Positions 13,087 through 63,736 of a stretch of 64,000 bases of DNA are shown piece after piece. Source of the DNA: Streptomyces sp. Edi2 (lineage in GTDB: Bacteria > Actinomycetota > Actinomycetes > Streptomycetales > Streptomycetaceae). Under the pieces are notes generated by a model. It did no database searches, was not told where the DNA came from, and was given only the letters and a program-made list of their open reading frames with translations. The position numbers were made by a program, and so were the translations under genes. Position 1 is the first letter of the stretch. Every line of letters begins with the position of its first letter. Location of the stretch: positions 3,100,001 through 3,164,000 of the forward strand of contig NZ_JBEJGX010000003.1 in assembly GCF_040253635.1 (NCBI RefSeq), read 5' to 3'.

Positions 13087-13180
13087 CTCACGCCATCGTC
13101 ACGACACCACGTCCTTGCGCGCGAACCCCCGGACTCACGCCGTCGTCACGACACCACGTCCTTGCGCGCGAACCCCCGGA
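13087..13180. repeat. 47-bp tandem duplication covering the 3' end of the permease gene
   Basis: Unit 1 (13087-13133) and unit 2 (13134-13180) differ at one base only (A13095 against G13142). Unit 2 holds the last codons and the TGA (13146-13148) of the minus-strand permease gene; unit 1 is a second copy of those codons and stop in the 3' flank. A recent event is implied by the near identity. Confidence 0.95.
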
Positions 13181-14006
13181 ACGCCAGCGCGCACAGCACC
13201 AGCGCATACGCCACCGAGACCGCCGAGCCCTGGATCATCCCGGACCACTCCATCCCGGGCTGCAGCGCGTCCGCCCAGGAGTACTGCCAGTGGGCGGGCA
13301 GCACCTGGCGCCAGGTGCCCAGGGCGGTGACCTGGTCGAGGACATTGCCGACGATGGTCAGCCCGACGGCGCCGCCGACCGCGCCCAGCGGCGCGTCGGT
13401 CACCGTCGACAGCCAGAACGCCAGGGCCGCGGTGACCAGCTGGCTGACGAAGAGGTAGCCGACCACGACCGCCAGCCGCGGCAGCGCCTCCTGCGCCGGC
13501 AGCGCGCCGCCGGCGGGCAGTTGCAGCGGGCCCCAGCCGTACGCCGCGGTGCCCACGCCCAGCGCCACCAGCGGCAGCAGCAGCATCGCGGCGGCGCTGA
13601 ACAGCAGCCCGACGGTGAGCTTGCTCAGCAGCAGCCGGGCCCGTGGGACCGGCGCGGCCAGCAGATAGCGCAGCGAGGACCAGCTCGCCTCGGACGCGAC
13701 CGTGTCACCGCAGAACAGGGCCACCGGGACCACCAGCACAAAACCCGCGGAGACGAACAGGGCGGTGGCGGCGAAGTTGGCGCCGGAGGCGGTGGCGCTG
13801 TCGATCAGGGTGATCCGGCCGTTGCTGCGGCCGTGCGGGTCGCCGCCGATCGCGAACGCCGCCGCCAGCACGAACGGCAGCAGCGTCAGGACGGCGGCGA
13901 TCACCAGGGTGCGGCGCCGCCGCAGCTGGCGGCGTGCCTCCACGCGCAGCGGGAGGGTGCGGCGCGGACGGTAACCCGGCGCCCGTGCCGTGGCGTGCGC
14001 GGTCAT
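13146..14006 (-). CDS. ABC-2 type permease
   Basis: 286-residue membrane protein with six predicted helices (about 35-55, 78-103, 128-150, 178-200, 205-225, 255-275). The RRQLRRRRTLVIAAVLTLLP entry and the long hydrophobic stretches fit the ABC-2 permease class. It overlaps the upstream hydrolase-ATPase fusion gene by 4 bp (ATGA), so the two are translated together and almost certainly form one complex. The substrate is unknown. The 3' end lies in a 47-bp tandem duplication. Confidence 0.85.
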   Translation of the reverse strand: MTAHATARAPGYRPRRTLPLRVEARRQLRRRRTLVIAAVLTLLPFVLAAAFAIGGDPHGRSNGRITLIDSATASGANFAATALFVSAGFVLVVPVALFCGDTVASEASWSSLRYLLAAPVPRARLLLSKLTVGLLFSAAAMLLLPLVALGVGTAAYGWGPLQLPAGGALPAQEALPRLAVVVGYLFVSQLVTAALAFWLSTVTDAPLGAVGGAVGLTIVGNVLDQVTALGTWRQVLPAHWQYSWADALQPGMEWSGMIQGSAVSVAYALVLCALAFRGFARKDVVS

Positions 14007-16702
14007 CGGTCACCTCCGATCAGGGTGAGGAAGGCGTCCTCCAGGCGGCGGTGCGGTCCGATGCGGTCCACGGCGACCTCCAGCCGGAGCAGTTCGGTGA
14101 GCAGCCCGGTGATGGTGAGGCCGCCGCCCAGCTGCACGAGCAGGCCCCCTTCGGCGCGCACGGCCGAGACCACACCCGGCAGTGCGGCCACCTTCTCCAC
14201 CACGGCGTCGCCGACCGGTTCCGCGGCACCGACCAGCACGGTGTCACCGGAGCCGGTGATCTCGGCGACCGGACCGGACCGCACCAGCCGCCCGCGGTCC
14301 ATCACGACCAGATGCGTACAGCTCTGTTCGACCTCGGACAGCAGATGGCTGGAGACGATGACGGTGCGTCCGGCGGCGGCGTAGCGGATCAGCACCTCGC
14401 GCATCGCACGGATCTGCGGCGGGTCGAGGCCGTTGGTCGGCTCGTCGAGGATCAGCAGATCCGGCAGCCCGAGCATGGCCTGGGCGATCGCGAGCCGCTG
14501 CCGCATGCCCTGGGAGTAGGTGCGTACGGCGCGCTGCAGGGCGTCGCCGAGGCCGGCGATGTCCAATGCCTCGTCGAGGTGCGCATCGGCGGCGGGCCGG
14601 CCGGTGGCCTGCCAGTACAGCTCCAGGTTGGCGCGGCCGGACAGATGCGGCAGGAAACCCGCGCCCTCGACGAACGCCCCGACCCGGGACAGCACCTCGG
14701 CGCCCGGCCGGACGGCCTGCCCGAAGACCCTGATCTCCCCCTCGTCGGGCCGGATCAGCCCCATCAGCATGCGCAGGGTGGTGGTCTTGCCGGCACCGTT
14801 GGGCCCCAGCAGACCGAGCACCTGCCCCTTCTCGACCCGGAAGGTGAGGTCCTGGACGGCATACCGGTCGGCGGACTTGGCGTAGCGCTTGCTCAGGCCG
14901 CTGATCTGCAGCGGGACCTCGGCGAGCGCCGGATCGGGGGCGGGCGCCGCGGCCCTGCGGCGGGTGGTGAGCAGCAGCAGCGCGGCCACCACGGCGGCCG
15001 CGGCGGGCAGCTGCCAGGTCCAGGCGGGCAGCGGGGCGGCCGCGCTGCGCACCTGCGGCGCGGTGGGCACGCTCAGGGCGCCGCCCTGCAGCGAGACGTG
15101 GTAGGTGGCGGGTCCGGACGGCGAGGCATAGCCGAGGTCGGTGGCGGAGAGCACCAGCCGCAGCCGGTGGCCGGCCGCGAGCTCGTGGTCGACGGCGGGC
15201 AGGTGCAGCCGCACGGTCCTGCCGTCGCGGGCGTCCTTGACCCGGTAGGGCGTCACGAGCTGGGACGGCAGGACCTGGCGGCGGCCGTCCGGGGCGACGT
15301 CGTAGACCTTGGCGAAGAACACCGCGTCCCGGGAGCTGGACCGCACGTGCACGGTGGCGGTGGGGCTGCCGGTGAGGTGGAGGGGGGTGCGCAGCGGCGC
15401 CGAGGCGAAGGCCGCGTACTGGCCCGGGAAATCCACGGACAGGCCGCCGGCGCCCAGCGAGGAGAGGTTGCCGAGCGCGCCGACGCCGGGCACCGCGGAG
15501 ATCGCGGGCGGTCCGGCACCGGCCGGGTTGCTGAAGTCCTGGGGGCGGCCCGCGAGGCGCACCCGCCGGGGATCGTTGTCCAGGCCGGGGTAGCTGCCCC
15601 CGCTCGCGCCGCGCAGCCGCACCGCGCCGTCGGTGGAGTCCACTCCCCCGGCGCGGCTGATCCGGAACGCGGGCCCGGTCGCGGCGTGCTTGTCGCCCTT
15701 CAGATAGCGGTCGAACCAGTCCTTCGTACGGGCTTCGAGACGGCCGAGCTCCCGGTCCCCGCCGTCGTGCCCGCCGGCGATCCAGTCGACCTCGGACGGC
15801 GCGCCGTTCTTGCGGATCGCCCGGTGCATGGCGTCGGCCTGGTCGAGCGGGAACAGCGAATCGGTCTGGCCCTGCATGATCAGGGTCGGCACCTTGATGC
15901 GGTCGCCGACCGCGGAGGGGCTGCGGGACTCCAGGAGCCGGCGGGCAGCCTCGTCCGGTCTGCCCTTCTCGGCGACCCGCTCGTACGTCCGGCACACCTC
16001 CGGCTCGAACCGGACGCAGCCGCCGGGCGCCGAGGGGGCGGCGGCCGGCGAGCCGGAGGTGCCCGCGGGGCCGGTGGTGAAGAAGATCCCCGCCCACAGC
16101 TTCTTGAAGACCCCGTGGGGGAAGAGGGCGTCGGCGAGGTTCCAGTAGGTGATCTGGGGGGCGATGGCGTCGACGCGCCGGTCGTAGCCGGCCGCCAGCA
16201 GCGAGATCGCGCCGCCGTAGGAGCCGCCGGCGACGCCCACCCGGGGATCGCCGGCCTTGTCGAGCCGCACTTCGGGGCGCTTGGCCAGCCAGTCGATCAG
16301 CCGGCGGACGTCGGCGACCTCGCCGTGCGGGTCGTTGAGCCCGATCTTGCCGGTGGACCTGCCGAAGCCGCGGGCCGACCAGGTCAGTACGGCGTACCCG
16401 TCCCGGGCCAGCTTCTCGGCCTGCGGGCGGAGGGTGTCCTTGGTGGCGCCGAAGCCGTGGGCGAGCAGGACGGCGGGCCGCCGCCGTGCGGCGGGCCCCG
16501 CCGTGAAGAAGGAGGTGTCGATCCGCACCTGCTCCTTGCTGCCGGGACGGTCGGGCATCGTCATCACCCGGTCCGCGCGGTGGACGGCGGGCGCGGCGTC
16601 CGAGGAGGCGGCCGCCCAGGTGCCGCCTCCTATGAGGACGGCCAGCGCACCCGCGGCGGCGCACCAGCGCCGGCCGCGCAGTCTGAGACCTCGGAGATCC
16701 AT
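14003..16702 (-). CDS. Fusion of an extracytoplasmic CocE/S15-type hydrolase with an ABC ATPase
   Basis: 899 residues in two functional parts. Residues 15-35 form a signal anchor. Residues 45-390 are an alpha/beta-hydrolase: HGFGATKDT (82-90), nucleophile S161 in GVAGGSYGGA, D281 in QGQTDSLFP, H312 in AGGHDGGD. Residues 395-550 form a beta-sandwich as in X-Pro dipeptidyl-peptidase/CocE proteins. Residues 561-580 are a second membrane helix. Residues 598-899 are a complete ABC ATPase: Walker A GPNGAGKT (633-640), signature YSQGM (729-733), Walker B LLILDEP (749-755), switch H786. Topology predicts hydrolase outside and ATPase inside. It is coupled by ATGA overlap to the permease. Proposed: a transporter whose ATPase subunit carries its own surface hydrolase, for export, immunity or peptide processing. 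Confidence 0.85.
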   Translation of the reverse strand: MDLRGLRLRGRRWCAAAGALAVLIGGGTWAAASSDAAPAVHRADRVMTMPDRPGSKEQVRIDTSFFTAGPAARRRPAVLLAHGFGATKDTLRPQAEKLARDGYAVLTWSARGFGRSTGKIGLNDPHGEVADVRRLIDWLAKRPEVRLDKAGDPRVGVAGGSYGGAISLLAAGYDRRVDAIAPQITYWNLADALFPHGVFKKLWAGIFFTTGPAGTSGSPAAAPSAPGGCVRFEPEVCRTYERVAEKGRPDEAARRLLESRSPSAVGDRIKVPTLIMQGQTDSLFPLDQADAMHRAIRKNGAPSEVDWIAGGHDGGDRELGRLEARTKDWFDRYLKGDKHAATGPAFRISRAGGVDSTDGAVRLRGASGGSYPGLDNDPRRVRLAGRPQDFSNPAGAGPPAISAVPGVGALGNLSSLGAGGLSVDFPGQYAAFASAPLRTPLHLTGSPTATVHVRSSSRDAVFFAKVYDVAPDGRRQVLPSQLVTPYRVKDARDGRTVRLHLPAVDHELAAGHRLRLVLSATDLGYASPSGPATYHVSLQGGALSVPTAPQVRSAAAPLPAWTWQLPAAAAVVAALLLLTTRRRAAAPAPDPALAEVPLQISGLSKRYAKSADRYAVQDLTFRVEKGQVLGLLGPNGAGKTTTLRMLMGLIRPDEGEIRVFGQAVRPGAEVLSRVGAFVEGAGFLPHLSGRANLELYWQATGRPAADAHLDEALDIAGLGDALQRAVRTYSQGMRQRLAIAQAMLGLPDLLILDEPTNGLDPPQIRAMREVLIRYAAAGRTVIVSSHLLSEVEQSCTHLVVMDRGRLVRSGPVAEITGSGDTVLVGAAEPVGDAVVEKVAALPGVVSAVRAEGGLLVQLGGGLTITGLLTELLRLEVAVDRIGPHRRLEDAFLTLIGGDR

Positions 16703-18253: not shown

Positions 18254-18261
18254 AACATCCC

Positions 18262-23857: not shown

Positions 23858-24850
23858 TCACCGCCCCGCGAGGAACGCGTCGACCTCGTCGGCCGTGGGC
23901 ATCGCGGACGAGCAGGCGAGACGGGAGGCGACGATCGCGCCGGCGGCGTTGGCGTAACGCATCATCGGCTCCAGGTCCCACCCGGCCAGGAGGCCGTGGC
24001 AGAGCGAGCCGCCGAAGGAGTCGCCGGCACCCAGGCCGTTGACGACCTCGACGGGGGTCGGCGGGACCTCGGCGGTACGGCCGTCGCGGTGCACGGCGAG
24101 CACGCCCTTGGGGCCCTGCTTGATGACGGCGAGTTCGACACCCATGTCCAGCAGCGCCTGGGCGCAGGCCTTGGGATCGCGCAGTCCGGTGGCGACCTCG
24201 GCCTCGTCGACATTGCCGACCGCCACCGTGGCGTGCCGCAGGGCGGCTTCGTAATACGGACGGGCGGTGGCCATCGCCGCGGCCCCGCTCGCGCCGCCGT
24301 CCCCGGAGGCGCCTCCCTCACCGCCCCAGAACATCGGCCGCCAGTCGAGGTCGAAGACGGTCGTCCCCGTCCTGGCGCGCGCCGCGAGCGCGGCAAGGGT
24401 GGCACTGCGGCTGGGCTCCTCGCACAGCCCCGTGCCGGTGACCCAGAAGATCCGGGCGCCCACGATGGCGTCCTGGTCCAGTTCCTCGGGGCGGATGACC
24501 AGGTCAGGGGCCTTGGGGCGGCGGTAGAAGTAGAGCGGGAAGTCGTCCGGCGGGAAGATCTCACAGAAGGTGACCGGCGTCGGATAGGCGTCGACGGGAG
24601 TCACCCAGCGGTCGTCCACACCGAACTCGCGCAGCGCCTGGTGGACATAGTCACCGAACGGGTCGCTTCCGGTGCGGCTGATGACCGCACTCCGCCGGCC
24701 GAGGCGGGCCGCGGCGACCGCCACATTGGTGGCCGAGCCACCGAGGAACTTCCCGAACGTCTCCACCTGCGCCAGCGGCACACCGGTCTGCAACGGGTAG
24801 ATGTCGACTCCGATGCGGCCCATGGTGATCAGGTCGTACGGCTCGGTCAT
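23858..24850 (-). CDS. iolC: 5-dehydro-2-deoxygluconokinase (PfkB family)
   Basis: 330-residue ribokinase-like kinase that phosphorylates 5-dehydro-2-deoxy-D-gluconate with ATP. N-terminal substrate motif GGSATNVAVAAARLG and the PfkB signature NGLGAGDSFGGSLCHG with the catalytic Asp are present. IolC-type DLDWRPMFW is also visible. The loop after it (GGEGGASGDGGASGAAA) is Gly/Ala-rich and longer than usual. The start at 24850 has AAGGGG at good spacing. First gene of the minus-strand iol operon, behind a promoter at 24908-24936. A 9-bp tandem repeat follows its stop. Confidence 0.93.
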   Translation of the reverse strand: MTEPYDLITMGRIGVDIYPLQTGVPLAQVETFGKFLGGSATNVAVAAARLGRRSAVISRTGSDPFGDYVHQALREFGVDDRWVTPVDAYPTPVTFCEIFPPDDFPLYFYRRPKAPDLVIRPEELDQDAIVGARIFWVTGTGLCEEPSRSATLAALAARARTGTTVFDLDWRPMFWGGEGGASGDGGASGAAAMATARPYYEAALRHATVAVGNVDEAEVATGLRDPKACAQALLDMGVELAVIKQGPKGVLAVHRDGRTAEVPPTPVEVVNGLGAGDSFGGSLCHGLLAGWDLEPMMRYANAAGAIVASRLACSSAMPTADEVDAFLAGR

Positions 24851-24936: not shown

Positions 24937-24940
24937 TACT

Positions 24941-26582: not shown

Positions 26583-27602
26583 ATGACTTCGCACGAAACG
26601 CTCGGCGTGGCGGTCATCGGCACCGGCCGGATGGGCGCCGACCACGTACGCCGGATCAATGAGGTGATCAGCGGCGCCCGGGTGGCGGCCGTGGTCGACA
26701 TCGATGCGGACCGCATCAAGCACCTCGCCGACGGCATCGACGGCTGCACCCCCTACACCGACCCGGCCGCCGCCATGGACGACCCCGCGGTGGACGCCGT
26801 ACTGATCGCCTCGCCGGGACCCGCGCACGAGGCGGCGCTGCTGGATGCCTTCGCGCGTGATCTGCCCGTGCTGTGCGAGAAGCCGCTGACGCCGGACGCG
26901 GCCTCCGCCCTGCGCGTCCTGGAGGCCGAGCAGGCGCTGGGGCACCGCCGTGTCCAGGTCGGTTTCATGCGCCGTTACGACGCCGACTACCGCACCCTCA
27001 AGTCCCTTCTAGGACAGGGAACTTACGGCCGTCCGCTGATGCTGCACAACAAGCACCGCAACGCCGACACCCCGCCCGGCTTCACCAACGCGATGATGAT
27101 CAATGACTCGGTGGTGCACGAGATCGATGTGACCCGCTGGCTCCTGGAGGAGGAGATCACCGCGGTCCGGGTGCTGCGCCCGGCCCCCACCGGCAACGCA
27201 CCGGAAGGCCTGAGCGACCCGCAGCTGGTCCTCTTCGAGACCGCGGGCGGCCAGGTCGTGGACACCGAGATCTTCGTCAACTGCGGCTTCGGCTACCAGG
27301 TCAGCTGCGAGGCGGTCTGCGAGGGCGGCACCGCCAGGATCGGCGACGACCACGGCGTGTTCAGCAACACCCCGGGCCGCTGGGGTGGCGCCATCCCTCC
27401 CGGCTTCGTGGAGCGCTTCGAGGAGGCCTACGACCGGCAGGTGCAGCGCTGGGTGAACGCCACCCGGCGCGGCGAGGTCGAGGGCCCCAGCTGCTGGGAC
27501 GGTTACGCCGCGGCCGCGGTGTGCGAGGCGGGCGTACGAGCCCAGGCCACCGGCGACCGGGTGCCCGTCGACCTGATCGAGCGGCCGTCGCTGTACCGCT
27601 AG
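26583..27602 (+). CDS. iolG: Inositol 2-dehydrogenase (Gfo/Idh/MocA family)
   Basis: 339-residue NAD-dependent oxidoreductase that oxidises myo-inositol to scyllo-inosose. Rossmann motif [13 protein letters not shown] (residues 9-21), LCEKPLTPD with the catalytic Lys, and the family segment [12 protein letters not shown]. The length is typical. The start at 26583 has GAGGA 6 nt upstream, within a GTCCT-type operator motif. The last six codons and the TAG form the first of six 21-bp tandem units that continue in frame to 27707; reading through TAG would add 34 residues and stop at TGA. A second IolG-like gene is at 33342. Confidence 0.92.
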
Positions 27603-27707
27603 CGGCCGTCGTGGCACCGCTCACGGTCGGCACTGCGCCACCGCCGGCCGGCACTGCACCGCTCACGGCCAACGCCGCGCCGCCACCGGCCGTCGCTGTA
27701 CCGCTGA
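27582..27707. repeat. 21-bp tandem repeat, 6 copies, starting in the last codons of iolG
   Basis: Units start at 27582, 27603, 27624, 27645, 27666 and 27687. Unit 1 is the final seven codons of iolG (RPSLYR-stop, TAG). Unit 6 is identical to unit 1 except that TAG is TGA. The period is in frame and units 2-5 contain no stop in the iolG frame. Confidence 0.95.
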
Positions 27708-27973
27708 CGTGTCCCGCCGAAAGGCGCTCCGCCGAAAGGCCGCCCCACCAAAAAGGCCCGTTCCACGGAAAGGCCCGCCGCACCCGAAAGGCCCCGCTCC
27801 ACCGAAAGGCCCCGCACCATGTACGTCGCTCCTGACGCCGACCCGCTCCGCACCGGCCTCATACCCCTGCGCCCCTCACCGGCCCGCCCCTCTCCGGCCC
27901 GGCCGACACCGACCCCGGCCCTGACCCCGGCCCCGGCCCCCGGCTGGGCCGGCGCGGCGTACCGGAGCTGAGG
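27708..27973. other. Repeat-rich leader of the sugar porter gene
   Basis: From about 27714 to 27819 the spacer is an 18-bp degenerate tandem repeat around CCGAAAGGCCCCGCTCCA (about six units). The rest up to 27973 is Pro-type CCGG-rich low-complexity DNA. No promoter or gene is convincing, so the porter is probably transcribed with iolG. Confidence 0.7.
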
Positions 27974-29434
27974 ATGGCCGCTCCGACCAGCCAGGTGGCG
28001 CCCGACGGCCCGCGCGAGAACGTGCGGGCCCGCAGCGCCAAGCGCTTCATCGTCGGCATCGCTGCCATTGCCGCCCTCGGCGGCGCCCTGTTCGGCTACG
28101 ACACCGGAGTGATCTCCGGCGCCCTCCCCTTCATGGAGACCCATTTCGGCCTCACCTCTCTGGGCGAGGGCATCATCACCAGCGCGCTGCTGATCGGCGC
28201 GGCCTTCGGTTCGCTGATCGGCGGCCGGATGGCCGACACGCTGGGCAGGCGCAACTCCCTGCTGTGGGCGGGCTCCGTGTTCATCGGCGGCGCGCTGGCC
28301 GTCGCGTTCTCGCCGAGCGTTCCCTTCATGACCGTGGCGCGCTTCGTCCTCGGGCTCGCCGTCGGCAGCGCCTCCGTCATCACCCCGCTGTACCTGTCGG
28401 AGATCGCGCCCCCGCACATCCGCGGCCGACTGGTCTCCTTCAATTCGCTGATGATCGTCAGCGGTCAGCTGCTCGCCTACCTCATCAATGCCGTTCTGGC
28501 GCACTGGGCGGCCTGGCGCTGGATGCTGGGCCTTGCGGCGCTGCCCGCCGTGGCACTGTTCGTCGGGCTGTTCTTCCTGCCCGACACGCCACGCTGGTAC
28601 ATCAGCAAGGGCCGGCCGGACGAGGCGGGCCGGGTGCTGCACCGTACGCTGCCCGCCGAGGACGTACCCGCCGAGCTGGCCCGTATCGACCAGGCCCGCG
28701 CCCTGGAGGCCGGCGCCCGGCGCGGCGCCTGGCAGCAGCTGCGCACCCCGTGGGTGCGGCGATTGCTGCTGGTCGGCATCGGTCTGGCAGCCGTCCAGCA
28801 GATCACCGGGGTCAACGCCGTGGTCTACTTCGCGCCCAAGATCCTCGCGTCGACCGGCCTGGGCACCGGCGCCTCGATCACCGCCACCATCGCGATCGGC
28901 GCGATCTCCGTCCTGGCCACGGCGATCGGGATGTCCCTGATCGACCGGGTCGGCCGGCGGCCCATGCTGCTTTCGGGTCTGGCCGGTATGGCCGTCTCGC
29001 TCGCCCTGCTCGGTGCCGCCTTCCGCCTGCCGCACTCCACCGCCGTCAGCGCCCTCGTGCTCGGTCTGATGGTGCTCTACATGGCGTTCATGCAGGCCAC
29101 CCTCAACACTGGTGTCTGGCTGCTGCTCGCCGAGATGTTCCCGCTCAAGGTGCGCGGACTGGCCATGGGCGCCGCGGTGTTCATGATGTGGATGGTCAAC
29201 TTCGGGGTCGCGCTCGCCTTCCCGCTGCTGCTCGACGCGGTCGGCGCGGGCACCACGTTCTGGTTCTTCGGCGTGATGTGTGTGCTGTCCCTGGTCTTCT
29301 GCAAGCGGTACGCACCGGAGACGAAGGGGCTGGCCCTGGAGGATCTGGAGCACGAGCTGCGCAAGGCGGTCACGAACGGGAGTCCGAACGGGAGCCCGGG
29401 CCGGAGTCCGGACGGGAGCCCGGGCCGGAGCTGA
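27974..29434 (+). CDS. iolT: Sugar porter (MFS), probable myo-inositol transporter
   Basis: 486-residue 12-helix transporter of the sugar-porter subfamily. Signatures: GYDTGVISGAL in helix 1, GGRMADTLGRR between helices 2 and 3, PDTPRWYISKGR after helix 6, QQITGVNAVVYFAP in helix 7, DRVGRRP, and YAPETKG after helix 12. These fit proton-coupled inositol or hexose uptake; position beside iolG makes inositol the best guess. The C-terminal tail (NGSPNGSPGRSPDGSPGRS) is encoded by a 24-bp tandem repeat that includes the stop codon and does not belong to the conserved fold. The ribosome binding site (CTGAGG) is weak. Confidence 0.85.
   Translation: MAAPTSQVAPDGPRENVRARSAKRFIVGIAAIAALGGALFGYDTGVISGALPFMETHFGLTSLGEGIITSALLIGAAFGSLIGGRMADTLGRRNSLLWAGSVFIGGALAVAFSPSVPFMTVARFVLGLAVGSASVITPLYLSEIAPPHIRGRLVSFNSLMIVSGQLLAYLINAVLAHWAAWRWMLGLAALPAVALFVGLFFLPDTPRWYISKGRPDEAGRVLHRTLPAEDVPAELARIDQARALEAGARRGAWQQLRTPWVRRLLLVGIGLAAVQQITGVNAVVYFAPKILASTGLGTGASITATIAIGAISVLATAIGMSLIDRVGRRPMLLSGLAGMAVSLALLGAAFRLPHSTAVSALVLGLMVLYMAFMQATLNTGVWLLLAEMFPLKVRGLAMGAAVFMMWMVNFGVALAFPLLLDAVGAGTTFWFFGVMCVLSLVFCKRYAPETKGLALEDLEHELRKAVTNGSPNGSPGRSPDGSPGRS
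29375..29434. repeat. 24-bp tandem repeat forming the C-terminal tail and stop of the sugar porter gene
   Basis: A half unit (29375-29386) is followed by full units 29387-29410 and 29411-29434; the last one ends in the TGA. Core sequence ACGGGAGCCCGGGCCGGAG. Confidence 0.9.
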
Positions 29435-31623: not shown

Positions 31624-31758
31624 GGGGGCGGGCCGGACGGGCTGGGACGGGCCGGGGCGGGAAAGAGCCGGGTGCGCCGGGTGGGCGCGGGGCGGACGGG
31701 CCCGGGCAAGCTCGCACGGACGCCGACCGGACGGGCGCCGGGCAAGGACGCCCCGGGC

Positions 31759-31806
31759 GTGGGTCAGACAGCCCGTGGGTCAGACAGTCCGTGGGTCAAG
31801 CAGTCC
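31759..31806. repeat. 16-bp tandem repeat, 3 copies, containing the LacI-family gene stop
   Basis: Units 31759-31774, 31775-31790 and 31791-31806. The third is the last codons and stop (31796-31798) of the minus-strand gene; the first two are downstream copies with two or three changes. Consensus GTGGGTCAGACAGTCC. Confidence 0.95.
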
Positions 31807-33058
31807 GTGGTGGTGCCGTTGAGCCCCTGATCTCCAGTTCCGGGGGCACGAGTTGCTGTCCGGCCGGGGCATCCGGGCGCTCCATACGGTCCAGGAGGCA
31901 GCGCGCCGCCCGCCGTCCGACCTCGTGGCTGGCGTTGTTCACCGAGTTGAGCCAGAGGTGGCGGATGCGGGCGAGATAGGTGTTGTCGTAGCCGACGAGG
32001 GAGAGATCGGCGGGAACGTCCAGTCCCAGCTCCTGGGCGGCGGACAGCGCGCCGACACCGGAGATGTCGTTGAACGCGAAGACAGCGGTGGGACGTTCGG
32101 CGGTGACACGTCCGGCTGCGGGGTCCATAGCGGTGAGAGGTTCGGCAGCGGGATCTCCAGGGCCAAGGCGTCCGGTGGTACGCGAGGGGTGGAGCAGCCG
32201 GACGGCCGCACGGTAGCCGCCCTCCTCGGTTCCGTCGCCGCTCTCCACGACGGCGCCGGCCGACAGGCCGTGGGAGCGTATGGCGGCCTCGAAGCCGCGG
32301 CGGCGCAGCTCGCCGACCTGGCCCTGCCCGGCGATATGGGCGATGCGCCGGTGGCCGAGGCCGATGAGGTGTTCGGTGGCGAGCCGGGCGCCGCGCTCAT
32401 CGTCGTTGGCGACGAGGTCGACACGCGGCAGCCGCGGTTCGTGGTTGCCCGCGATGACGGTCGGCAGCCGCTCCGCCACCTCGGCGAGGCCTTCGGTGTC
32501 CGGGAGCGTGCCGACGATGACGATGCCGTCGACCCGCAGTTCCTGGAAGGTACGGGCGAAGTCCTGGCCGGCCCGCCGGTCCAGCCGGGCGTCGATCATC
32601 AGCATCCGCAGACCGTGCGCCTGCAGCAGAGAGTTCAGACCGTCGAGCACTTCGACGAACCAGGGGTTGCGCATATCGTGCAGCAGCACGCCGACCGTGT
32701 GGGTACGGCGTGCGGCCAGGCTGCGGGCCGCGGCGTTCGGCCGGTAGCCCAGTTCCTCGATCGCCGCCAGCACGGCCTGCCGCCTGGCCTCGCTGACCCG
32801 CGGTGAGCCCTGCAGCACGAGCGAGACCAGCGACTTGGAAACACCCGCACGCTCGGCGACCCCGCGGATCGTCGGATGCCGGTCCGCGCCCGGCCGCAAC
32901 CCGGACAGCTCGCCGGGCCGCTCGCCGAGCTCTGCTCCGTCCCGTCCTCCATCCCGCTCTCCGGGCCGTTCTCCGTCCCGTCCTCCATCCCGCTCTCCGG
33001 GCCGTTCTCCGTCCCGCTCTCCGGATCGCCCGTCGGCGCGCTGATTGGACCGTTCCAT
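31796..33058 (-). CDS. LacI-family transcriptional regulator
   Basis: 420 residues. The DNA-binding helices are PTIRGVAERAGVSKSLVSLVLQGSPRVSEA (given in parts, about residues 60-90), followed by the hinge YRPNAAARSLA and a periplasmic-binding-like sensor domain (VGVLLHDMRNPWFVEVLDGL, GHRRIAHIAG, NDISGVGAL, SLVGYDNTYLARI). About 55 residues precede the HTH, mostly a charged Gly-Glu-Arg-Asp repeat from two identical 36-bp units, longer than normal for LacI. The start codon lies within an operator-like palindrome, suggesting autorepression. It is divergent from an inositol-dehydrogenase-like gene, its likely target. The 3' end lies in a 16-bp tandem repeat. Confidence 0.88.
   Translation of the reverse strand: MERSNQRADGRSGERDGERPGERDGGRDGERPGERDGGRDGAELGERPGELSGLRPGADRHPTIRGVAERAGVSKSLVSLVLQGSPRVSEARRQAVLAAIEELGYRPNAAARSLAARRTHTVGVLLHDMRNPWFVEVLDGLNSLLQAHGLRMLMIDARLDRRAGQDFARTFQELRVDGIVIVGTLPDTEGLAEVAERLPTVIAGNHEPRLPRVDLVANDDERGARLATEHLIGLGHRRIAHIAGQGQVGELRRRGFEAAIRSHGLSAGAVVESGDGTEEGGYRAAVRLLHPSRTTGRLGPGDPAAEPLTAMDPAAGRVTAERPTAVFAFNDISGVGALSAAQELGLDVPADLSLVGYDNTYLARIRHLWLNSVNNASHEVGRRAARCLLDRMERPDAPAGQQLVPPELEIRGSTAPPRTA
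32939..33010. repeat. 36-bp perfect tandem repeat in the 5' end of the LacI-family gene
   Basis: 32939-32974 and 32975-33010 are identical, followed by a partial copy. In frame, each encodes a 12-residue charged Arg/Asp/Glu/Gly unit between the start codon and the HTH. Confidence 0.95.
33045..33058. promoter_or_regulatory. LacI-type operator overlapping the regulator's start codon
   Basis: TTGGACCGTTCCAT; on the minus strand it reads ATGGAACGGTCCAA, the first codons of the LacI-family gene. The same palindrome recurs at 33169-33182. Confidence 0.65.
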
Positions 33059-36406: not shown

Positions 36407-37696
<1,290 letters not shown>

Positions 37697-40088: not shown

Positions 40089-40574
40089 GGACCGACCGTA
40101 CCGCCGGGGTCTGACATCGCGCCGGGCCGCGGGACACGCGGATCGGGCCGGGAGGCGGGACGCCCGGATCGGGCCGGGTCCGCTCCGGACCGCCGGATCC
40201 TATCGAGGGGCCCGTCCGATGGTCGGGCCCCTCGATTCCCCCTCCACGCCGGTCCCGGGTCCCCCCCGGGCCCCTCCCCTTCGGGACCGGCGTCAGCTAT
40301 GACCTTTGTGGACGGCCAACGGTTGCGCGCATCCGCTGAGTTATTTCTCCGGCACCCGCTGTGCGCTTTGCCTCGTCAACCGGCGTGGGCGGAGGGGGCT
40401 CGTCGCCCGGCGTGCGCGAGGGACTTGTGGTCCGGCGTGCGCGAGGGACTTGTGGTCCGGCGTGCGCAAGGGGCTTGTGATCCGGCATCCGTGGGGGCCC
40501 GTCATCCGGCATGCGTGGGGAACTCGTCGTCCGGCATCCGTGGGGGCTCGTCATCCGGGTGCGTGCGGAACACG
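40089..40574. other. Spacer with terminator and nine-copy repeat
   Basis: No gene is supported. It contains the helicase promoter side (40089-40200), the terminator at 40202-40236, and the 24-27-bp repeat array from 40374 to the TIM-barrel gene's stop. Confidence 0.6.
40202..40236 (-). terminator. Terminator downstream of the TIM-barrel/oxidoreductase operon
   Basis: Perfect 13-bp stem (40202-40214 with 40224-40236), 9-nt loop, core GAGGGGCCCG / CGGGCCCCTC. Confidence 0.8.
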
Positions 40575-40597
40575 TCAACCGACGTGCGTGCGGAAGC
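40374..40597. repeat. 24-27-bp tandem repeat, 9 copies, beginning in the last codons of the TIM-barrel gene
   Basis: Units start near 40374, 40401, 40426, 40451, 40476, 40500, 40525, 40549 and 40573. Consensus CGTCATCCGGCGTGCGCG followed by GGGACT. The last listed unit (40573-40597) contains the gene's final codons and its TGA (40575-40577). Confidence 0.93.
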
Positions 40598-44108: not shown

Positions 44109-45254
44109 ATGATCGCCAGGACGCCATCCGATGCACCATCCGACACGCCAACCGACGCACCGCCCGACGCACCGTGCGGGGCACGGCCCGATGCCGCGGC
44201 CGACGTCCGCGAGCTGCGCAGATTCAACCGCTTCTATACGAATCTGATCGGTGCGCTCGACTACGGGCGGCATCTGTACACCCCGTTCACTCTCACCGAG
44301 GCGCGGGTGCTCTACGAGGTCGCCAACCATCCGCGGGTGGACGCCGCGGATCTGCGCGCCTCGCTGTCGCTGGACGCCGGCTATCTCAGCCGGCTGCTCG
44401 GCAAGTTCGAGGACCGCGAGCTGATCACCCGCGGCCGGTCCGAGCAGGATTCCCGGCGGCAGCGCATCACGCTGACCGAGGACGGCCGGGAGGCGGCCGG
44501 CCTGTTGGAGGAGCGCTCCCAGGACGCCGCGGGAACGCTGCTGCGGCAGCTGACGGCCGCGGACCGCGCCCGCCTGGTGGAGGCGATGCGCACCGTCCGC
44601 GCCCTGCTGGACGAGGGCGCGGAACAGCCCGGCGAAGGGACGGAACTGCCTGACCAGGGCACAGAACGGCCCGGCCAGGGGGCGGAACAGGTCGGTCAGG
44701 AGGCGGCACGAGCCGGCGAGGGGGCGGATCAGCCCGGCGAGAGGGATCGGCAGCCGCGCGGGGACGGCGTATCCGGGGTCACGCTGCGTACCTCCCGCCC
44801 CGGGGACCTCGGCTGGATGGTGGAGCGCAACGCCGCCCTCTACTCCGCCGAGTACGGCTTCGACCTGAGCTACGAGGCGCTGGTGGCCCGGATCATCGCG
44901 GAGTACGCCGAGGACTTCGACCCGCGGTGGGACCGCACCTGGATAGCGGAGCTGGGCGGGGAGCGCGTGGGCGCGGTGATGTGTGTACGGGACGGCAGAC
45001 CAGGGGTCGCTCGGCTGCGGCTGCTGCTCGTGGAACCGGCCGCCCGGGGGCACGGGGCAGGGCGGCAACTCGTCGACTCCTGCATCGAGTTCGCGCGGGA
45101 GGCCGGGTACGGCGAGATGGTGCTGTGGACCAACTCCGTCCTCGGCGCGGCCCGCACCCTCTACCAGCGGGCCGGATTCGAGCTGGTCACCGAGTCGCCG
45201 CACCACAGCTTCGGACAGGACCTGGTCGGCCAGGACTGGCGACTGACGCTGTGA
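44109..45254 (+). CDS. MarR regulator fused to a GNAT acetyltransferase
   Basis: 381 residues. Residues about 33-160 are a MarR winged helix (FTLTEARVLYEVANHP, ADLRASLSLDAGYLSRLLGKFE, LITRGRSEQDSRRQRITLTEDG). Residues about 165-215 are a repetitive Gln/Glu/Gly/Pro linker (EQPGEGTELPDQGTERPGQG). Residues 225-381 are a GNAT domain with the acetyl-CoA motif LLVEPAARGHGAGRQLVDSC and the ending LGAARTLYQRAGFELV. Fusions of this order are common in Streptomyces; partner substrates are unknown. The N-terminal 24 residues repeat a Asp-Ala-Pro-Ser/Pro unit. The stop codon lies in a 20-25-bp repeat array. Confidence 0.9.
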   Translation: MIARTPSDAPSDTPTDAPPDAPCGARPDAAADVRELRRFNRFYTNLIGALDYGRHLYTPFTLTEARVLYEVANHPRVDAADLRASLSLDAGYLSRLLGKFEDRELITRGRSEQDSRRQRITLTEDGREAAGLLEERSQDAAGTLLRQLTAADRARLVEAMRTVRALLDEGAEQPGEGTELPDQGTERPGQGAEQVGQEAARAGEGADQPGERDRQPRGDGVSGVTLRTSRPGDLGWMVERNAALYSAEYGFDLSYEALVARIIAEYAEDFDPRWDRTWIAELGGERVGAVMCVRDGRPGVARLRLLLVEPAARGHGAGRQLVDSCIEFAREAGYGEMVLWTNSVLGAARTLYQRAGFELVTESPHHSFGQDLVGQDWRLTL

Positions 45255-45450
45255 GATCACGGCTGGCGCTGTGAGCCCACGAGTGACGCCACGAGTCCAC
45301 GGCGGACGAGGGGCTCTGTGACACCACGGGTGACGCCGTAAGACCACGGGGGACGGGAGCGCTGTGACACCACAGGTGACGCCGTGAGCGCACAGGTGAC
45401 GCTGTGAATCCACGAGTCCATGGGTGACGCCGTGAGTCCACGGGTGACGG
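45241..45450. repeat. 20-25-bp degenerate tandem repeat, about 10 copies, starting at the MarR-GNAT stop
   Basis: Units of the form GGTGACGCCGTGAGTCCACG run from the last codons (GACTGACGCTGTGA) to about 45450. Reading through the TGA would add 28 codons before TAA. Confidence 0.88.
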
Positions 45451-45537: not shown

Positions 45538-46638
45538 ATGGCCCCCACGAATCGCACTGACGGCAAGAGCGCGGACGACAGGCACACGAGCGGCGGACCC
45601 ACGGGCGACAGGCCCACGGACGACACGCACACGGACGGCGGACCCACGATCGACAGGCCCGCGGACGGCGGGCGCACGGGCGGCGGACCCACGATCGACA
45701 GGCCCACGGACGGCGGGCCGACGGAGGTCAGGCCCGCGGAGAGCGGCAGGCGTACGGACGGCAGGGTGCCTGCGATGCGCTATGCGTTTTCGACCCTCGG
45801 TGTGCCGGGGATGCCGGTGGCCGAGGTGCTGCGGCTGGCCGCCGATGCCGGGTATCAGGGGGTCGAGCTGCGGGCCCATCCGGAGGAGCCGGTGCATCCG
45901 CTGATCGGGGAGCAGGAACGGGCCGCGGTGCGGGGGCAGTTCGCGGACGCCGGTGTGGAGATCCTGGCCGTTGCCGGATACGCCCGGGTCGCCGCCGCCC
46001 GCGATACGGCGGGCGAGGAGGAGCTGGCACACGAGCTGGCCGAGCTGGTCCGCCTCGCCGCCGATCTGGGGGCGCCGTACGTCCGCGTCTTTCCCGGCGG
46101 TGGCGACCGCCCGGCGGCCGAGGCGGACGCGGATGCCGCCCGCCGGCTCGCCGCGGTGGCGCCGCTCGCGGCCGAACGGGGCGTCCGGGTCCTGCTGGAG
46201 ACCCATGACTCGCACCGGACCGGCGCGGCCGCCGCCCGTGTGCTGGGCCTTGTGGGGCATCGCCGGATCGGGGCGCTGTGGGATGTGCAGCACAGCTGGC
46301 TCGCCGGCGAGGAGCCCGTCGACACCCATGCCGCGCTCGCCCCGCATCTGGGCTATGTGCAGGTCAAGGATGTCGCCTCGGCCGGGGAAGGCACCCCCCT
46401 CCCGCTCGGCGCCGGCGCCATCCCGCTGGCGGCCGCCCTGCGCACCCTCGCCCGCGAGCCCGAAGGCGCCCACGGTCCCGTACCGGCTCCCGAGGGCACC
46501 TACGACCAGGGCTCGGGAGGCTGGCTCTGCTGGGAGTACGAGAAGCGCTGGTATCCGGAAGCGCCCGACCTCCCCGCCCTGCTGGCACCGGGCCGCGCGT
46601 ACCTCCAACGGCTCCTCAGCGAAGGCACCCCCTCCTGA
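45538..46638 (+). CDS. Sugar phosphate isomerase/epimerase-type TIM barrel with repetitive N-terminal extension
   Basis: 366 residues from ATG 45538, which has AAGGAG 9 nt upstream. The conserved barrel begins only at residue 80 (MRYAFSTLGVPGMPVAEVLRLAADAGYQGVELR, quoted in part) and includes LLETHDSHRTG, GALWDVQHSWLAGE, GYVQVKDVAS and WEYEKRWYP, a hydroxypyruvate-isomerase/inosose-dehydratase-like layout. Residues 1-79 are a Gly/Asp/Pro/Thr/Arg repeat (GGPTIDRPxDGG) encoded by a 45-bp repeat. If the extension is not translated, the start is ATG 45775, which has no clear ribosome binding site. Possibly part of the same sugar pathway as the 40.6-43.9 kb operon. Confidence 0.8.
   Translation: MAPTNRTDGKSADDRHTSGGPTGDRPTDDTHTDGGPTIDRPADGGRTGGGPTIDRPTDGGPTEVRPAESGRRTDGRVPAMRYAFSTLGVPGMPVAEVLRLAADAGYQGVELRAHPEEPVHPLIGEQERAAVRGQFADAGVEILAVAGYARVAAARDTAGEEELAHELAELVRLAADLGAPYVRVFPGGGDRPAAEADADAARRLAAVAPLAAERGVRVLLETHDSHRTGAAAARVLGLVGHRRIGALWDVQHSWLAGEEPVDTHAALAPHLGYVQVKDVASAGEGTPLPLGAGAIPLAAALRTLAREPEGAHGPVPAPEGTYDQGSGGWLCWEYEKRWYPEAPDLPALLAPGRAYLQRLLSEGTPS
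45634..45730. repeat. 45-bp repeat in the 5' end of the TIM-barrel gene
   Basis: GACCCACGATCGACAGGCCC occurs at 45641-45660 and 45686-45705, with flanking GGCGG and CGGACGGCGGG also repeated at the same 45-bp period. Shorter related units extend upstream to about 45590. Confidence 0.85.
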
Positions 46639-46828
46639 CCTGCCCGCCGGCCCACCTGCCCGTCGATCCCACCCGCCCCCCGACGTCCCATCACATATCC
46701 ATGCCCGCCCCGCAATACCTGGGCGCCATCACGAATCGAGTCATTGACCGACAATAGTTTTCCGGCTATCCGTGTCTCCTTGGAAGTTTCCTTCAACGAT
46801 TCGAGGAAGCCCTCCGGAAGGAGCGCAC

Positions 46829-48722: not shown

Positions 48723-48807
48723 TCCGGTCATCGCACCGCGACCGCCGGGCGCTCCGGCGCGGCGGCGTGCAGCGCGGCGGCGTCCGACGTCCGACGTCCG
48801 GCCTAAC

Positions 48808-48899
48808 GACCTCAGGGCCTCAGGGCCTCAGGGCCACACGGTCAGACAGCCGCACAGACGGCCTCACCGCCTCACGGCCTCACGGCCTCACGGCCTCAG
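48808..48899. repeat. 8-bp tandem repeats around the aminopeptidase stop
   Basis: GGCCTCAC-type units at 48860, 48868, 48876, 48884 and 48892 contain the minus-strand stop (48888-48890). A second block of CTCAGGGC (three copies) lies at 48811-48834. The unit is nearly the same as that at the 3' end of the ABC exporter gene 1.7 kb away. Confidence 0.93.
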
Positions 48900-50306: not shown

Positions 50307-50560
50307 GCACCCTCCCCTTGGGATAGCAAAGGTCGGGCTGAACCTATCGGCGCGACGGGGGTGCCACCAGCCCCTGGCGCCGTTCAGCGGATCATCCGAA
50401 CGGCACACTGCCGGTATCGCCGAAGCCGCCGGTACCTCCGGACGACCCCTCGCCTGCCCTCGGACGGCGTATCCCCTGCCTCCGGACGGCGCCTCCGACA
50501 CCTCCGGAGGCCATGCCGTCAGGGCCCTCCGGACCTCAGGCTCCGGGCCTCAGGCGTCAG

Positions 50561-50600
50561 GCCCTCACGGCCTCAGGCCCTCACGGCCTCAGCGCCTCAG
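50561..50600. repeat. 16-bp tandem repeat containing the ABC exporter stop
   Basis: GCCCTCACGGCCTCAG at 50561-50576 and 50577-50592, then the half unit CGCCTCAG (50593-50600) that contains the stop (50597-50599). Related CCTCAGG strings continue to about 50530. Confidence 0.92.
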
Positions 50601-53600
50601 GCAGCCAATTCCTCCTCCTCGCCCGTGAACGTGCGCCACAGCTCCGCGTAGCGGCCGTCGCGGGCCAGCAGTTGGGCATGGCTGCCGTCCTCGGCGATCC
50701 GTCCGCGGTCGAGGAGCACCACGCGGTCCGCGCGGGCCGCGGTGGTCAGGCGGTGGGCGACGATCAGGGTGGTGCGGCGGCGGACGGACGGGGCCTGGTC
50801 CGTCCGGGGGGAGCCGAGAGCCCGGGGGCTGCCGGTGGCCTGGTTGACGACGGCTTCGGTGGCCAGGTCCAGGGCGGCGGTGGCCTCGTCCAGCAACAGC
50901 ACGTCCGGGTCGACGAGTTCGGCGCGGGCCAGCGCCAGCAGCTGGCGCTGGCCGGCCGAGAGGTTACGGCCGCGCTCGGCGATCTCGTGGAGGTAGCCGC
51001 CGTCGAGGGTCGCGACCATCGCATGGGCGCCGACGGCCCGCGCGGCGGCCTCCACCTCGGCGTCGGTGGCCTCCGGGCGGCCGTAGGCGATGGCGTCGCG
51101 GACGGTGCCGGCGAAGAGGTAGGACTCCTGGGGGACCACCCCCAGACGGCGGCGGTAGCCGGTCAGATCCAGCTCGCGCAGGTCGGTGCCGTCGATACGG
51201 ACGGCACCCGCTGACGGGTCGTAGAACCGCGCGACCAGCTTGACCAGGGTGGACTTGCCGGCGCCGGTCTCACCGACGAAGGCCACGGTCTGGCCGGCCG
51301 GAATGGTCAGATCGATGCCGGCCAGGGCCGGCTCGTCGCCCTTGCCGTAGTGGAAGTGCACTGCGTCGAAGGCGATGTCGCCCCGCAGCGCGGGCACCTC
51401 GCGGGGCCGTTCGGGGGCCGGGGTGGTGGTCGGCTCGCGCAGCAGCTCCTGTATTCGTCCGAGGGAGACGGACGCCTGCTGGTAGCCGTCGAAGACCTGG
51501 GAGAGCTGCTGGACGGGGGCGAAGAACAGGTCGATGTAGAGCAGGTAGGCGACCAGCGCGCCGGTGGTGAGGGTGTGGGAGCCGACCCGGTCGGCGCCGA
51601 CGATCAGCACCAGCGCCGCCGCCACGGACGACAGCAGCTGGACGAACGGGAAGTAGACGGATATCAGGAACTGGCCGCGGACCCGCGCCCGGCGGTAGGC
51701 GTCGCTGCGGGCGGCGAACCGCTGTGCGCCGCGCTCCTCGCGCCGGAACGCCTGGACGATCCGCAGTCCGGCCACGCTCTCCTGGAGGTCGCCGTTGACG
51801 ACGCTGATCCGCTCGCGGGCCAGCTCGTACGCCTTCACGCTCTGCTTGCGGAAGAAGTACGTGCCGATGATCAGCGGGGGCAGGGTGGCGAAGACGACCA
51901 GGGCCAGCTGGAGGTCGATGGCCAGCAGCGCGACGAGTATGCCGAAGAAGGTGAGCATCGAGACCAGGGCGGTGACCAGGCCGGTCTGCAGGAACGTCGA
52001 CAGCGCGTCCACGTCCGTGGTCATCCTGGTCATGATCTTGCCGGACAGTTCGCGCTCGTAGTAGTCCAGCCCGAGGCGCTGGAGCTGCGCGAAGATCTTG
52101 AGGCGAAGGGAGTAGAGGACCCGCTCACCGATCCGTCCGGTCATGCGGTTGCCGCCGATCTGCGCGGCCCATTGCGCCAGGACGACGAGCAGGGCGATCC
52201 CGGCGGCGGTCCAGACGCCGACCAGCGCCCCGCGCCGGACGCCCTCGTCGATGCCCTGCCGGATCAGGACCGGCAGCAGCAGCCCGGCCAGTGCGTCCAG
52301 GGCGACCAGCCCCAGCGCGAAGGCCAGCGGCCCGCCGAAGCCGTGCAGCAGCCGGCGCAGGCCGTAGGCGCGCTCGGGGCGCACGGCCTGCTCCTCGTCG
52401 ACGTCCGGGGTCTCCGTGGCGGGCGGCAGGGCGGCGACCTGGGCGAGGAGTTCGGGGGTGGCAGGGAGTCCGGCCATCGCGGCGCCGATACCGGGCCCGG
52501 CCGCGGCGGCCGCGCGGGCCGCCATCCCGGCCCCGCCCGCCTCGGCCTCCTGCTCACGGCGCACCCACAGCTCGGGGGTGATGCTGCCGGCCGCCCCGGG
52601 CCGGTCTGCCGCACCGTCGCCCTCGGTCGCGGGCTCGGGCTCCGTCTCCGTCCCGGCCTCGGCCGCCGTCTCCCTCCCTGCCTCGATGCCGGCCTCGATC
52701 TCGATCCGGGCCGCGGGCTCGGTGGCGTCCGCTGACCGCTCCTGGGCCGGCAGCCGGCCGTCGGCGAACTCGCCGTCGAAGATCCCGGACGCCTCATCCG
52801 CCGGGTCCCAGCCGGTGCCGCCCAGCTCCTCCGGGTCGGCCAGCAGCCTGCGGTAGAGCGGGCAGCGGTCTTCCAGCTCCTCGGTGGTGCCGATGTCGAT
52901 GAGCCGTCCGTCGTCCAGGACGGCGACGCGGTCCGCCAGCGCCAGGGTGGAGGCACGATGGGCGATGAGCAGCGTGGTCCGGCCCGCCATGACGCCGCGC
53001 AGCGCCTCGTGGATCTCGTGCTCGACCCGGGCGTCGACCGCCGAGGTCGCATCGTCCAGCACCAGCAGCCGGGGGTCGGTGAGGATGGCGCGGGCCAGGG
53101 CGACGCGCTGCCGCTGGCCGCCGGACAGGGTCAGCCCCTGCTCGCCGACCTTGGTGTCATAGCCCTGGGGCAGCTCCGATATGAAGCCGTCGGCCTGGGC
53201 GGCGCGGGCCGCGGTGCGCACCTGCTCGTCGGTGGCGTCCGGGTGCCCGTAGGCGATGTTGTCGCGTACGGAGTCGGAGAACAGGAAGCTGCTCTCGGGC
53301 ACCAGGCCGATGGCGGCCCGCAGGGACGCCAGGGTCAGGTCGCGCACATCGTGGCCGCCCACCAGGACCCGGCCCGCCGAGACGTCGTAGAAGCGGGGCA
53401 GCAGCAGCGAGAGGGTGGATTTGCCGCTGCCGGACGTGCCGACCACGGCGACCGTCTCCCCCGCCTCGATGCGCAGCGAGAAGTCGTCGAGAACGGGTCG
53501 GAGGGGGCGGTCGGGACGGTCGTGGTGGTCGGAACGGTCGGAGCCAGGGCGGTCACCGGCGGCCGGGGTGTCCTCCGCGGGCCCGCCGCGGTGACCGTCG

Positions 53601-61758: not shown

Positions 61759-61792
61759 GGCGCTCCCGCCCCGCGGCACGGCTGCCGCACGA

Positions 61793-61836: not shown

Positions 61837-61891
61837 CACGCATACCGCTCTCACACATAGCGGCTCAGCCGGCCGGTGACCGGGCGGGGGG

Positions 61892-63460: not shown

Positions 63461-63658
63461 GTGGACCCCTTCGATGGGGGCCACCCCGGACCTGGCACCC
63501 CCGGGCGGGGAGCGGCACACGTCCGTCGGTCCCTGTCCGGGGCACCACAACCACCACGACAGACCGCAGGTTCACCACAACACGGCGGGCTGCGCACCCC
63601 GAGGAGGGATGGGCAGCCCGTTTGGTTCGGTAGGGGCTGCATGCCCACCCGGCAAGGC

Positions 63659-63736
63659 GGCGAAACCTCCAGGGGCTCAGTGGAGATGTCAGGGCCCGGT
63701 GGAGACTTCAGAGTCCGGCGGAGACTTCAGGAGTCC
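63659..63736. repeat. 19-20-bp tandem repeat, 4 copies, containing the stop of the ThDP enzyme gene
   Basis: Units 63659-63678, 63679-63697, 63698-63716 and 63717-63736. The last contains the final codons and stop (63727-63729) of the minus-strand gene. Consensus GGTGGAGACTTCAGAGTCC. Confidence 0.93.

What the first reader, a model, noticed from the sequence alone, without database searches (positions are those of the whole stretch)
13087..63736. Stop codons of many genes lie inside short tandem repeats copied into the 3' flank
At least eight genes show the same arrangement: permease (47 bp x2), iolG (21 bp x6), sugar porter (24 bp x2.5), LacI regulator (16 bp x3), TIM-barrel gene (24-27 bp x9), MarR-GNAT (20-25 bp x10), aminopeptidase (8 bp x5), ABC exporter (16 bp x2.5) and ThDP enzyme (19-20 bp x4). 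In each case one unit is the gene's own last codons plus stop and the others extend downstream. Units differ in sequence and length, so this is not one mobile repeat. It looks like a process that repeatedly duplicates DNA at gene ends, and may generate new C-termini or buffer termination. I know of no described system of this kind.
Basis: partly seen in the sequence, partly recalled or inferred. Interest (0 to 1): 0.8.

Follow-up and report, generated by a model that had tools for sequence, protein, structure and literature searches.

The report
Tolerated short duplications at gene ends
In this Streptomyces genome, short stretches of DNA are repeatedly copied in tandem in the spaces after genes, often taking in the stop codon, and the pattern is mostly what is expected where such copies do no harm rather than the work of a machine aimed at gene ends.

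Summary
Eight of the nine listed genes have a stop codon inside a tandem array. In the ninth, the sugar porter, the array is coding and ends just before the stop. Orthologous gene ends in other Streptomyces carry arrays too, mostly with unrelated units: independent origin, fast turnover.

The stop codon is not the target. Arrays fill the 3' flank, evenly across convergent gaps, and thin out towards the next gene. Stop-spanning arrays enter the gene by up to one repeat unit, uniformly, as expected when duplications are kept that leave the protein unchanged. A neutral placement model reproduces most stop overlaps. I found no sign of backup stops, terminator hairpins or new C-termini.

Best explanation: microhomology-assisted tandem duplication in unconstrained non-coding DNA, sieved by purifying selection. 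A residual excess of 3' flanks over DNA far upstream of starts, two- to threefold in the first 60 bp after stops in this genome and relatives, is unexplained. Known kind of repeat; modest interest.

The parts
13087..13180 (-). 47-bp unit x2 spanning the stop of the ABC-2 permease gene 13146-14006(-); 35 bp lie in the gene
   Evidence: the six relatives shown have a single copy of this gene end (read by eye)
27582..27709 (+). 21/42-bp units (about 6 x 21) from the last 21 bp of the iolG-like gene 26583-27602(+) into the flank; further arrays follow at 27717-27812 and 27870-27940
29376..29431 (+). 24-bp coding repeat at the C-terminus of the sugar porter 27974-29434(+); does not contain the stop
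31758..31810 (-). 16-bp unit x3.3 spanning the stop of the LacI-type regulator 31796-32899(-)
40372..40595 (-). 24/25/49-bp units (about x9) spanning the stop of the TIM-barrel gene 40575-41441(-)
45243..45385 (+). 20/47-bp units spanning the stop of the MarR-GNAT gene 44109-45254(+)
46638..46683 (+). 17-bp unit x2.8 starting at the last base of the stop of gene 45538-46638(+)
48800..48899 (-). 8/16-bp units spanning the stop of the peptidase S37 gene 48888-50306(-)
50523..50602 (-). 8/16-bp units spanning the stop of the ABC exporter gene 50597-54700(-)
63680..63736 (-). 19-bp unit x2.1 (TRF) spanning the stop of the ThDP-enzyme gene, which runs from 63727 past the window end (called to window coordinate 65484)
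   Evidence: relative G380 has nearly the same unit with 3.3 copies

Best explanation
These are ordinary non-coding minisatellite-like arrays. Short stretches (mostly 12-50 bp) are tandemly duplicated, often between short direct repeats (replication slippage or microhomology-mediated repair), and then expand, mutate and vanish quickly. They persist where they do no harm. A duplication that starts inside the last codons and ends past the stop leaves the protein unchanged, because the first copy keeps the original end; so the 3' flank plus up to one repeat unit of the gene end is a permissive zone. Shown: abundance, positions, uniform one-unit intrusion, loss of frame, mostly unrelated units at orthologous ends, excess homology at duplication borders, no MutS_V match. 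Inferred: slippage as the mutation, purifying selection as the sieve, and any contribution of missing MutS repair.
For: Convergent gaps are evenly filled, gaps between co-directional genes show a gradient from about 24% after the stop to about 0 at the next start, divergent gaps are poor; enlarged sample: convergent 24.3% (CI 19.1-29.9), co-directional 14.2%, divergent 4.5%. Intrusion into the gene divided by unit length looks uniform on 0-1: 75 of 82 are at most one unit, KS p 0.69 for those 75; relatives 39 of 43, KS p 0.17. Periods are multiples of 3 in 242 of 262 gene-internal arrays but 18 of 59 stop arrays. Stop overlaps in co-directional gaps equal the neutral expectation with a 75-bp protected zone before the next start (46 against 46.1; relatives 31 against 31.1 at 50 bp). 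Of 467 orthologous array pairs, 25 share a unit above the 99th percentile of random pairs (about 5 expected) and 64 share the period within 1 bp. Exact two-copy non-coding duplications (units 12-80 bp) extend by at least 3 bp beyond two units in 17 of 33 (this genome) and 43 of 69 (relatives); blunt joining with a chance match of 0.30 per base predicts about 8%. No MutS_V match (11 of 14 control genomes ring), one NucS; NucS is reported unable to correct indels (PMC8228993, passages).
Against: 3' flanks exceed even distal upstream DNA of divergent gaps (>=120 bp from both called starts). This genome: convergent gaps 24.3% and the first 60 bp after stops in co-directional gaps 25.7% (CI 20.5-30.7), against 8.4% (4.1-13.3). 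Relatives: 27.6% (21.2-34.3) in the first 60 bp against 13.4% (7.3-19.9), not overlapping; convergent gaps 19.5% (12.7-27.4), overlapping. In this genome array starts are about twice as frequent within -20..+40 of the stop as further out; in relatives the decline is gentler. Convergent overlaps are slightly above neutral in this genome (P 0.025). The neutral fit for co-directional gaps depends on the protected zone: 0 and 30 bp fail here, 50 bp gives P 0.016, 100 bp overshoots; in relatives 0 bp fails. S. ambofaciens wild-type mutation-accumulation lines are reported with 9 indels, all of 1-4 bp (PMC11109965, passages), so such duplications are not frequent on laboratory time scales. MutS repair mainly handles loops of a few bases (recalled), so its absence may matter little here.
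Confidence: 0.7

Rival explanations
1. A mutational bias makes 3' ends duplication-prone, for example replication pausing at transcription-termination zones or R-loops; selection only trims the result.
For: The first 60 bp after stops in co-directional gaps exceed distal upstream DNA in this genome (25.7% against 8.4%) and in relatives (27.6% against 13.4%), with separate intervals; plateau of array starts within 40 bp of the stop in this genome. Array-free 3' flanks (65-75% identity, 34 pairs) and distal 5' flanks (63-68% beyond 105 bp, 63 pairs) are about equally diverged.
Against: Convergent-gap overlaps in relatives equal the neutral model (12 against 12.7), and convergent and distal-upstream densities overlap there. 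Distal upstream DNA may hold regulatory sites that tolerate repeats poorly. The first 80 nt after stops fold no better with arrays (mean z -1.06 over stop, -0.53 flank only) than without (-1.59).
Confidence: 0.2
2. Arrays are selected as backup stop codons, terminators or buffers of termination.
For: Flanks with an array over the stop carry more stops in any frame (2.7 against 1.35 per 100 bp).
Against: In-frame second stop within 10 codons in 8 of 46 against 37 of 272; no reading frame kept; weaker folding than array-free flanks; unit sequences mostly unrelated between orthologs. Bacteria in general are reported to show no selection for additional stops (PMC6764699, abstract).
Confidence: 0.04
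3. A dedicated process or mobile element targets stop codons.
For: 108 stop overlaps against 53 expected at random.
Against: No peak at the stop, uniform intrusion; 100 of 108 stop arrays have no similar stretch elsewhere in the 1.96 Mb; stop usage in arrays like that overall (77 of 99 TGA against 898 of 1187).
Confidence: 0.03
4. Assembly or gene-calling artefact.
For: Gene calls come from a home-made caller; starts agreed with annotation in only 11 of 22 matched genes.
Against: Stops of 22 of 23 calls agreed with annotation; arrays are in many separately deposited Streptomyces contigs; the G380 ortholog of the ThDP gene carries nearly the same 19-bp unit.
Confidence: 0.03

Closest known systems
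Tandem repeats of archaeal Borg elements (PMC9879509, abstract and passages seen)
   Same: Head-to-tail units essentially unique to each place, independently arising, fast evolving, mostly not multiples of 3 between genes and always so inside genes; [quoted passage not shown]
   Different: Borg units are perfect and A-enriched and lie on extrachromosomal elements; here copies are 82-84% alike (median) and lie in a GC-rich chromosome.
GGGAATC/GGGGA(C/T)T repeats of Xanthomonas and Nostoc (PMC4692102, passages and one section seen)
   Same: Repeats downstream of ORFs concentrate within 50 bp of the stop, some overlap it, and they are rare between divergent ORFs.
   Different: One fixed G-quadruplex heptamer; here each array has its own unit.
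Mycobacterial VNTR/MIRU loci (PMC2734929 passages seen; the overlap of MIRUs with flanking stop/start codons is recalled)
   Same: Actinobacterial intergenic minisatellites of variable copy number.
   Different: MIRUs are a dispersed sequence family; these arrays mostly are not.

Membership tests
Non-coding minisatellite formed by slippage | Head-to-tail copies above chance | tested here: met
   11.0% of intergenic bases against 0.2-0.4% in 5 shuffles
Non-coding minisatellite formed by slippage | Extra homology at duplication borders | tested here: met
   at least 3 bp in 17 of 33 and 43 of 69, about 8% expected if blunt; arrays of more copies (h >= unit) were left out, and later partial expansion could add to the signal
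Non-coding minisatellite formed by slippage | Copy number varies between relatives | tested here: met
   nearly the same 19-bp unit, 2.1 copies here, 3.3 in G380; one case; within-species variation not tested
Borg-type tandem repeats | Perfect copies | tested here: not met
   median match 82-84% by class of array
Borg-type tandem repeats | A enrichment of units | not tested
   unit composition was not measured; window GC is 72%
MIRU / dispersed repeat family | Shared sequence between loci | tested here: not met
   8 of 108 stop arrays have any similar stretch elsewhere in 1.96 Mb at E 1e-4
Fail-safe stop codons | Enriched in-frame second stops | tested here: not met
   8 of 46 against 37 of 272 within 10 codons; 5 of 76 with an array in the flank only
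Intrinsic terminator arrays | Stronger folding than flanks without arrays | tested here: not met
   mean z -1.06 (46 flanks, array over stop), -0.53 (60 sampled of 76, flank only), -1.59 (60 sampled of 272, none)
Known RNA family | Rfam match over an array | tested here: not met
   the one match at gathering score, Scr2736 at 36281-36342, lies on none of the arrays listed

The most novel reading that the evidence does not exclude
In Streptomyces, DNA just downstream of genes suffers tandem duplication more often than equally unconstrained DNA elsewhere, because of something that happens at gene 3' ends such as transcription termination meeting replication; gene-end duplication would then be a lineage-specific mutational process and a steady source of new 3' sequence.
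Probability: 0.18. Interest if true: 0.6.

Novelty: new member of a known kind. Interest (0 to 1): 0.33.

Why it matters
A recent survey reports no average enrichment of short tandem repeats in bacteria (PMC12699852, abstract and passages). Streptomyces non-coding DNA looks like a counter-example for longer units, and its pattern maps where non-coding DNA is free to change. It also warns that repeats sitting on stop codons need no special machinery. If the residual 3' excess survives better tests, it would point to a transcription-linked mutation process that mutation-accumulation lines could test.

Tried and rejected
Rejected: one mobile or dispersed repeat; backup stops and terminator hairpins; Rfam element; arrays as makers of new C-termini (30 of 123 against 79 of 264; the per-gene comparison has few cases, Mantel-Haenszel odds ratio 1.67 on 10 genes, so a small effect is not excluded); purely blunt end-joining, although four strong Ku matches are present and the 47-bp permease duplication looks blunt by eye (my reading). 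MutL was not searched.

Constraint test: array-free 5' flanks look conserved for about 90 bp, but called starts lie downstream of annotated ones in 9 of 22 matched genes (by 18-330 bp) and upstream in 2, so part of that is coding; start-side results are therefore weak.

Dropped rows: own segments at 1.0 Mb, 7.0 Mb, C1 and C2 (100 kb) for poor gene calling (coding coverage 0.14-0.47), from then on. Two loci from other MAGs (L090, L092) are not in the outgroup counts. Searches used the first 1.16 Mb of this genome, the 1.96 Mb. About 48% of 'intergenic' arrays have periods that are multiples of 3 (116 of 243), so some lie in genes my caller missed.

Literature: ten searches were answered, all in the open PMC library. 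Judged by the listed titles and abstract beginnings (8 to 20 papers per call), none is about stop-spanning arrays in Streptomyces. Longer hit lists were not seen in full, and this is not proof that no such paper exists.
Full report
The window lies at 3.10-3.16 Mb of the 9.12-Mb contig C3 in a 9.81-Mb, six-contig genome. The iolG-like protein is 94% identical to that of Streptomyces inhibens and 92-93% to those of S. lydicus and S. nigrescens, so this is a Streptomyces of that clade.

Checking the observation. Eight of the nine listed genes have the stop codon inside an array; the sugar porter has an in-frame coding array that ends before the stop. Arrays are far above chance: 11.0% of bases in 382 intergenic sequences against 0.2-0.4% in five dinucleotide shuffles. 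Genes were called with a home-made model. Against annotation of a 40-kb S. rimosus plasmid stretch, 22 of its 23 stops were right, 22 of 29 annotated genes were found, and 11 of 22 starts agreed. Stop-side results are therefore fairly sound, start-side results weaker. Of 1076 arrays, 108 overlap stops against 53.1 +/- 6.8 for random placement, and 17 overlap starts against 55.1.

Where arrays lie. Around 502 stops with at least 40 bp of gap, the share of bases in arrays is 0.4-3.4% further inside genes, 7.9% in the last 20 bp, 15.6% in the first 20 bp after the stop, about 20% at +20 to +59, and falls to about 8% by +300. Upstream of 529 starts it is 1-7% within 140 bp and about 9-12% further out (starts imprecise). 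Convergent gaps are filled evenly, co-directional gaps show a gradient falling from the stop to the next start, divergent gaps are poor. In the larger sample convergent gaps have 24.3% (CI 19.1-29.9, 137 gaps), co-directional 14.2% (378), divergent 4.5% (158); relatives give 19.5%, 14.3% and 6.2% (58, 302, 130 gaps). The stop is an edge of the zone, not its centre.

Neutral model. If any tandem duplication is kept that leaves the protein intact and spares a zone before the next start, an array may begin up to one unit inside the gene. That predicts uniform intrusion between 0 and 1 unit. Observed: 75 of 82 within one unit, KS p 0.69 for those 75; relatives 39 of 43, KS p 0.17. Predicted stop overlaps in convergent gaps: 27.9 +/- 3.8 against 36 observed (P 0.025) here, and 12.7 against 12 in relatives. 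Co-directional gaps match at a 75-bp protected zone here (46 against 46.1) and at 50 bp in relatives (31 against 31.1); with smaller zones the observed number is above the model, significantly so at 0, 30 and 50 bp here and at 0 bp in relatives, and with larger zones it is below. So most of the signal is explained, with a free parameter for co-directional gaps, and a small excess in this genome is not excluded.

Function tests. Stop arrays keep no reading frame (18 of 59 periods are multiples of 3, against 242 of 262 inside genes). A second in-frame stop within 10 codons is about as common (8 of 46 against 37 of 272). The first 80 nt after the stop fold no better than array-free flanks. C-terminal length changes are no commoner among ortholog pairs with arrays (30 of 123) than without (79 of 264). 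Stop-codon choice is alike in arrays (77 of 99 TGA) and overall (898 of 1187).

Evolution. I compared the window's genes with six syntenic 60-kb stretches of unnamed relatives, one further stretch (G048, later dropped as a duplicate), and 48 named Streptomyces loci. Of 652 orthologous gene ends, 113 carry an array over the stop or starting within 30 bp of it; for iolG 18 of 54, for gene 23858-24850 12 of 51. The units mostly differ: of 467 pairs, 25 share a unit above the 99th percentile of random pairs (about 5 expected) and 64 share the period within 1 bp. Some are shared by close relatives, such as the 8-bp-based array of the S37 peptidase and the 19-bp array of the ThDP gene. The 47-bp permease duplication is absent from the six relatives shown, which keep the single copy (by eye). 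Arrays thus arise from the gene's own end, repeatedly and mostly independently.

Mutation mechanism. Exact two-copy non-coding duplications extend beyond two full units by at least 3 bp in 17 of 33 cases here and 43 of 69 in relatives; blunt joining predicts about 8% at an assumed chance match of 0.30. This favours slippage or microhomology-mediated duplication, with the caveat that later partial expansion would look alike. The genome has no MutS_V match, one NucS and four strong Ku matches. NucS is described as unable to correct indels (PMC8228993, passages), but loops of 12-50 bases are probably beyond MutS repair as well (recalled), so this is at most a contributing factor.

How widespread. 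The share of intergenic bases in arrays is 21.1% in the window, 8.9% in the 1.96 Mb, 7.7% in the 48 named Streptomyces loci, 0.9-6.0% in 80-kb samples of five other genomes of the class (one of them of the same genus), 0.44% in 15 alphaproteobacterial loci and 0.3% in 6 Bacilli loci. The syntenic stretches of the six relatives range from 9.0% to 21.4%. G+C content of the outgroup loci was not matched.

What remains. Distal upstream DNA in divergent gaps (8.4%, CI 4.1-13.3, here; 13.4%, 7.3-19.9, in relatives) has fewer arrays than the first 60 bp after stops in co-directional gaps (25.7%, 20.5-30.7, here; 27.6%, 21.2-34.3, in relatives). For convergent gaps the difference is clear here (24.3%) but the intervals overlap in relatives (19.5%). 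Distal 5' flanks and 3' flanks are about equally diverged. Either regulatory sites keep repeats out of upstream DNA, or 3' ends are more duplication-prone. My data do not separate these.

Known work. [quoted passage not shown] Among the papers listed by my searches none is about stop-spanning arrays in Streptomyces. The finding is real and more general than stated, but it needs no new system.

Noticed in passing
window 36281-36342 (+): Rfam match to Scr2736, a Streptomyces small RNA (56.6 bits, gathering score 43), in the gap between called genes 35617-35904 and 36407-37696.
   Followed up: no
window 62501-63324: 378-bp tandem repeat (2.2 copies, 80% match) inside a gene with NHL/Vgb-lyase-like and TIG domains.
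   Followed up: no
window 45572-45740: 45-bp coding repeat x3.1 near the start of gene 45538-46638.
   Followed up: no
window 48800-48899 and 50523-50602: The arrays after the S37 peptidase and the neighbouring ABC exporter resemble each other (87% over 38 bp), though most other stop arrays have no similar stretch elsewhere.
   Followed up: partly
3' flank of the orthologs of gene 50597-54700(-) in G380, G422, G326: A shared inverted repeat lies downstream of the stop; in G380 and G422 the arrays sit between it and the stop (read by eye, array positions).
   Followed up: no
own genome C3, 64-kb tiles over 2.60-3.62 Mb, and 5.00-5.08 Mb: Array counts vary widely between tiles (14 to 51), and the 5.00-5.08 Mb stretch has almost none between genes (0.5% of intergenic bases).
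   Followed up: no
L063 (S. plumbidurans): 40% of intergenic bases of this 21-kb locus lie in tandem arrays, the highest of the 48 named Streptomyces loci.
   Followed up: no
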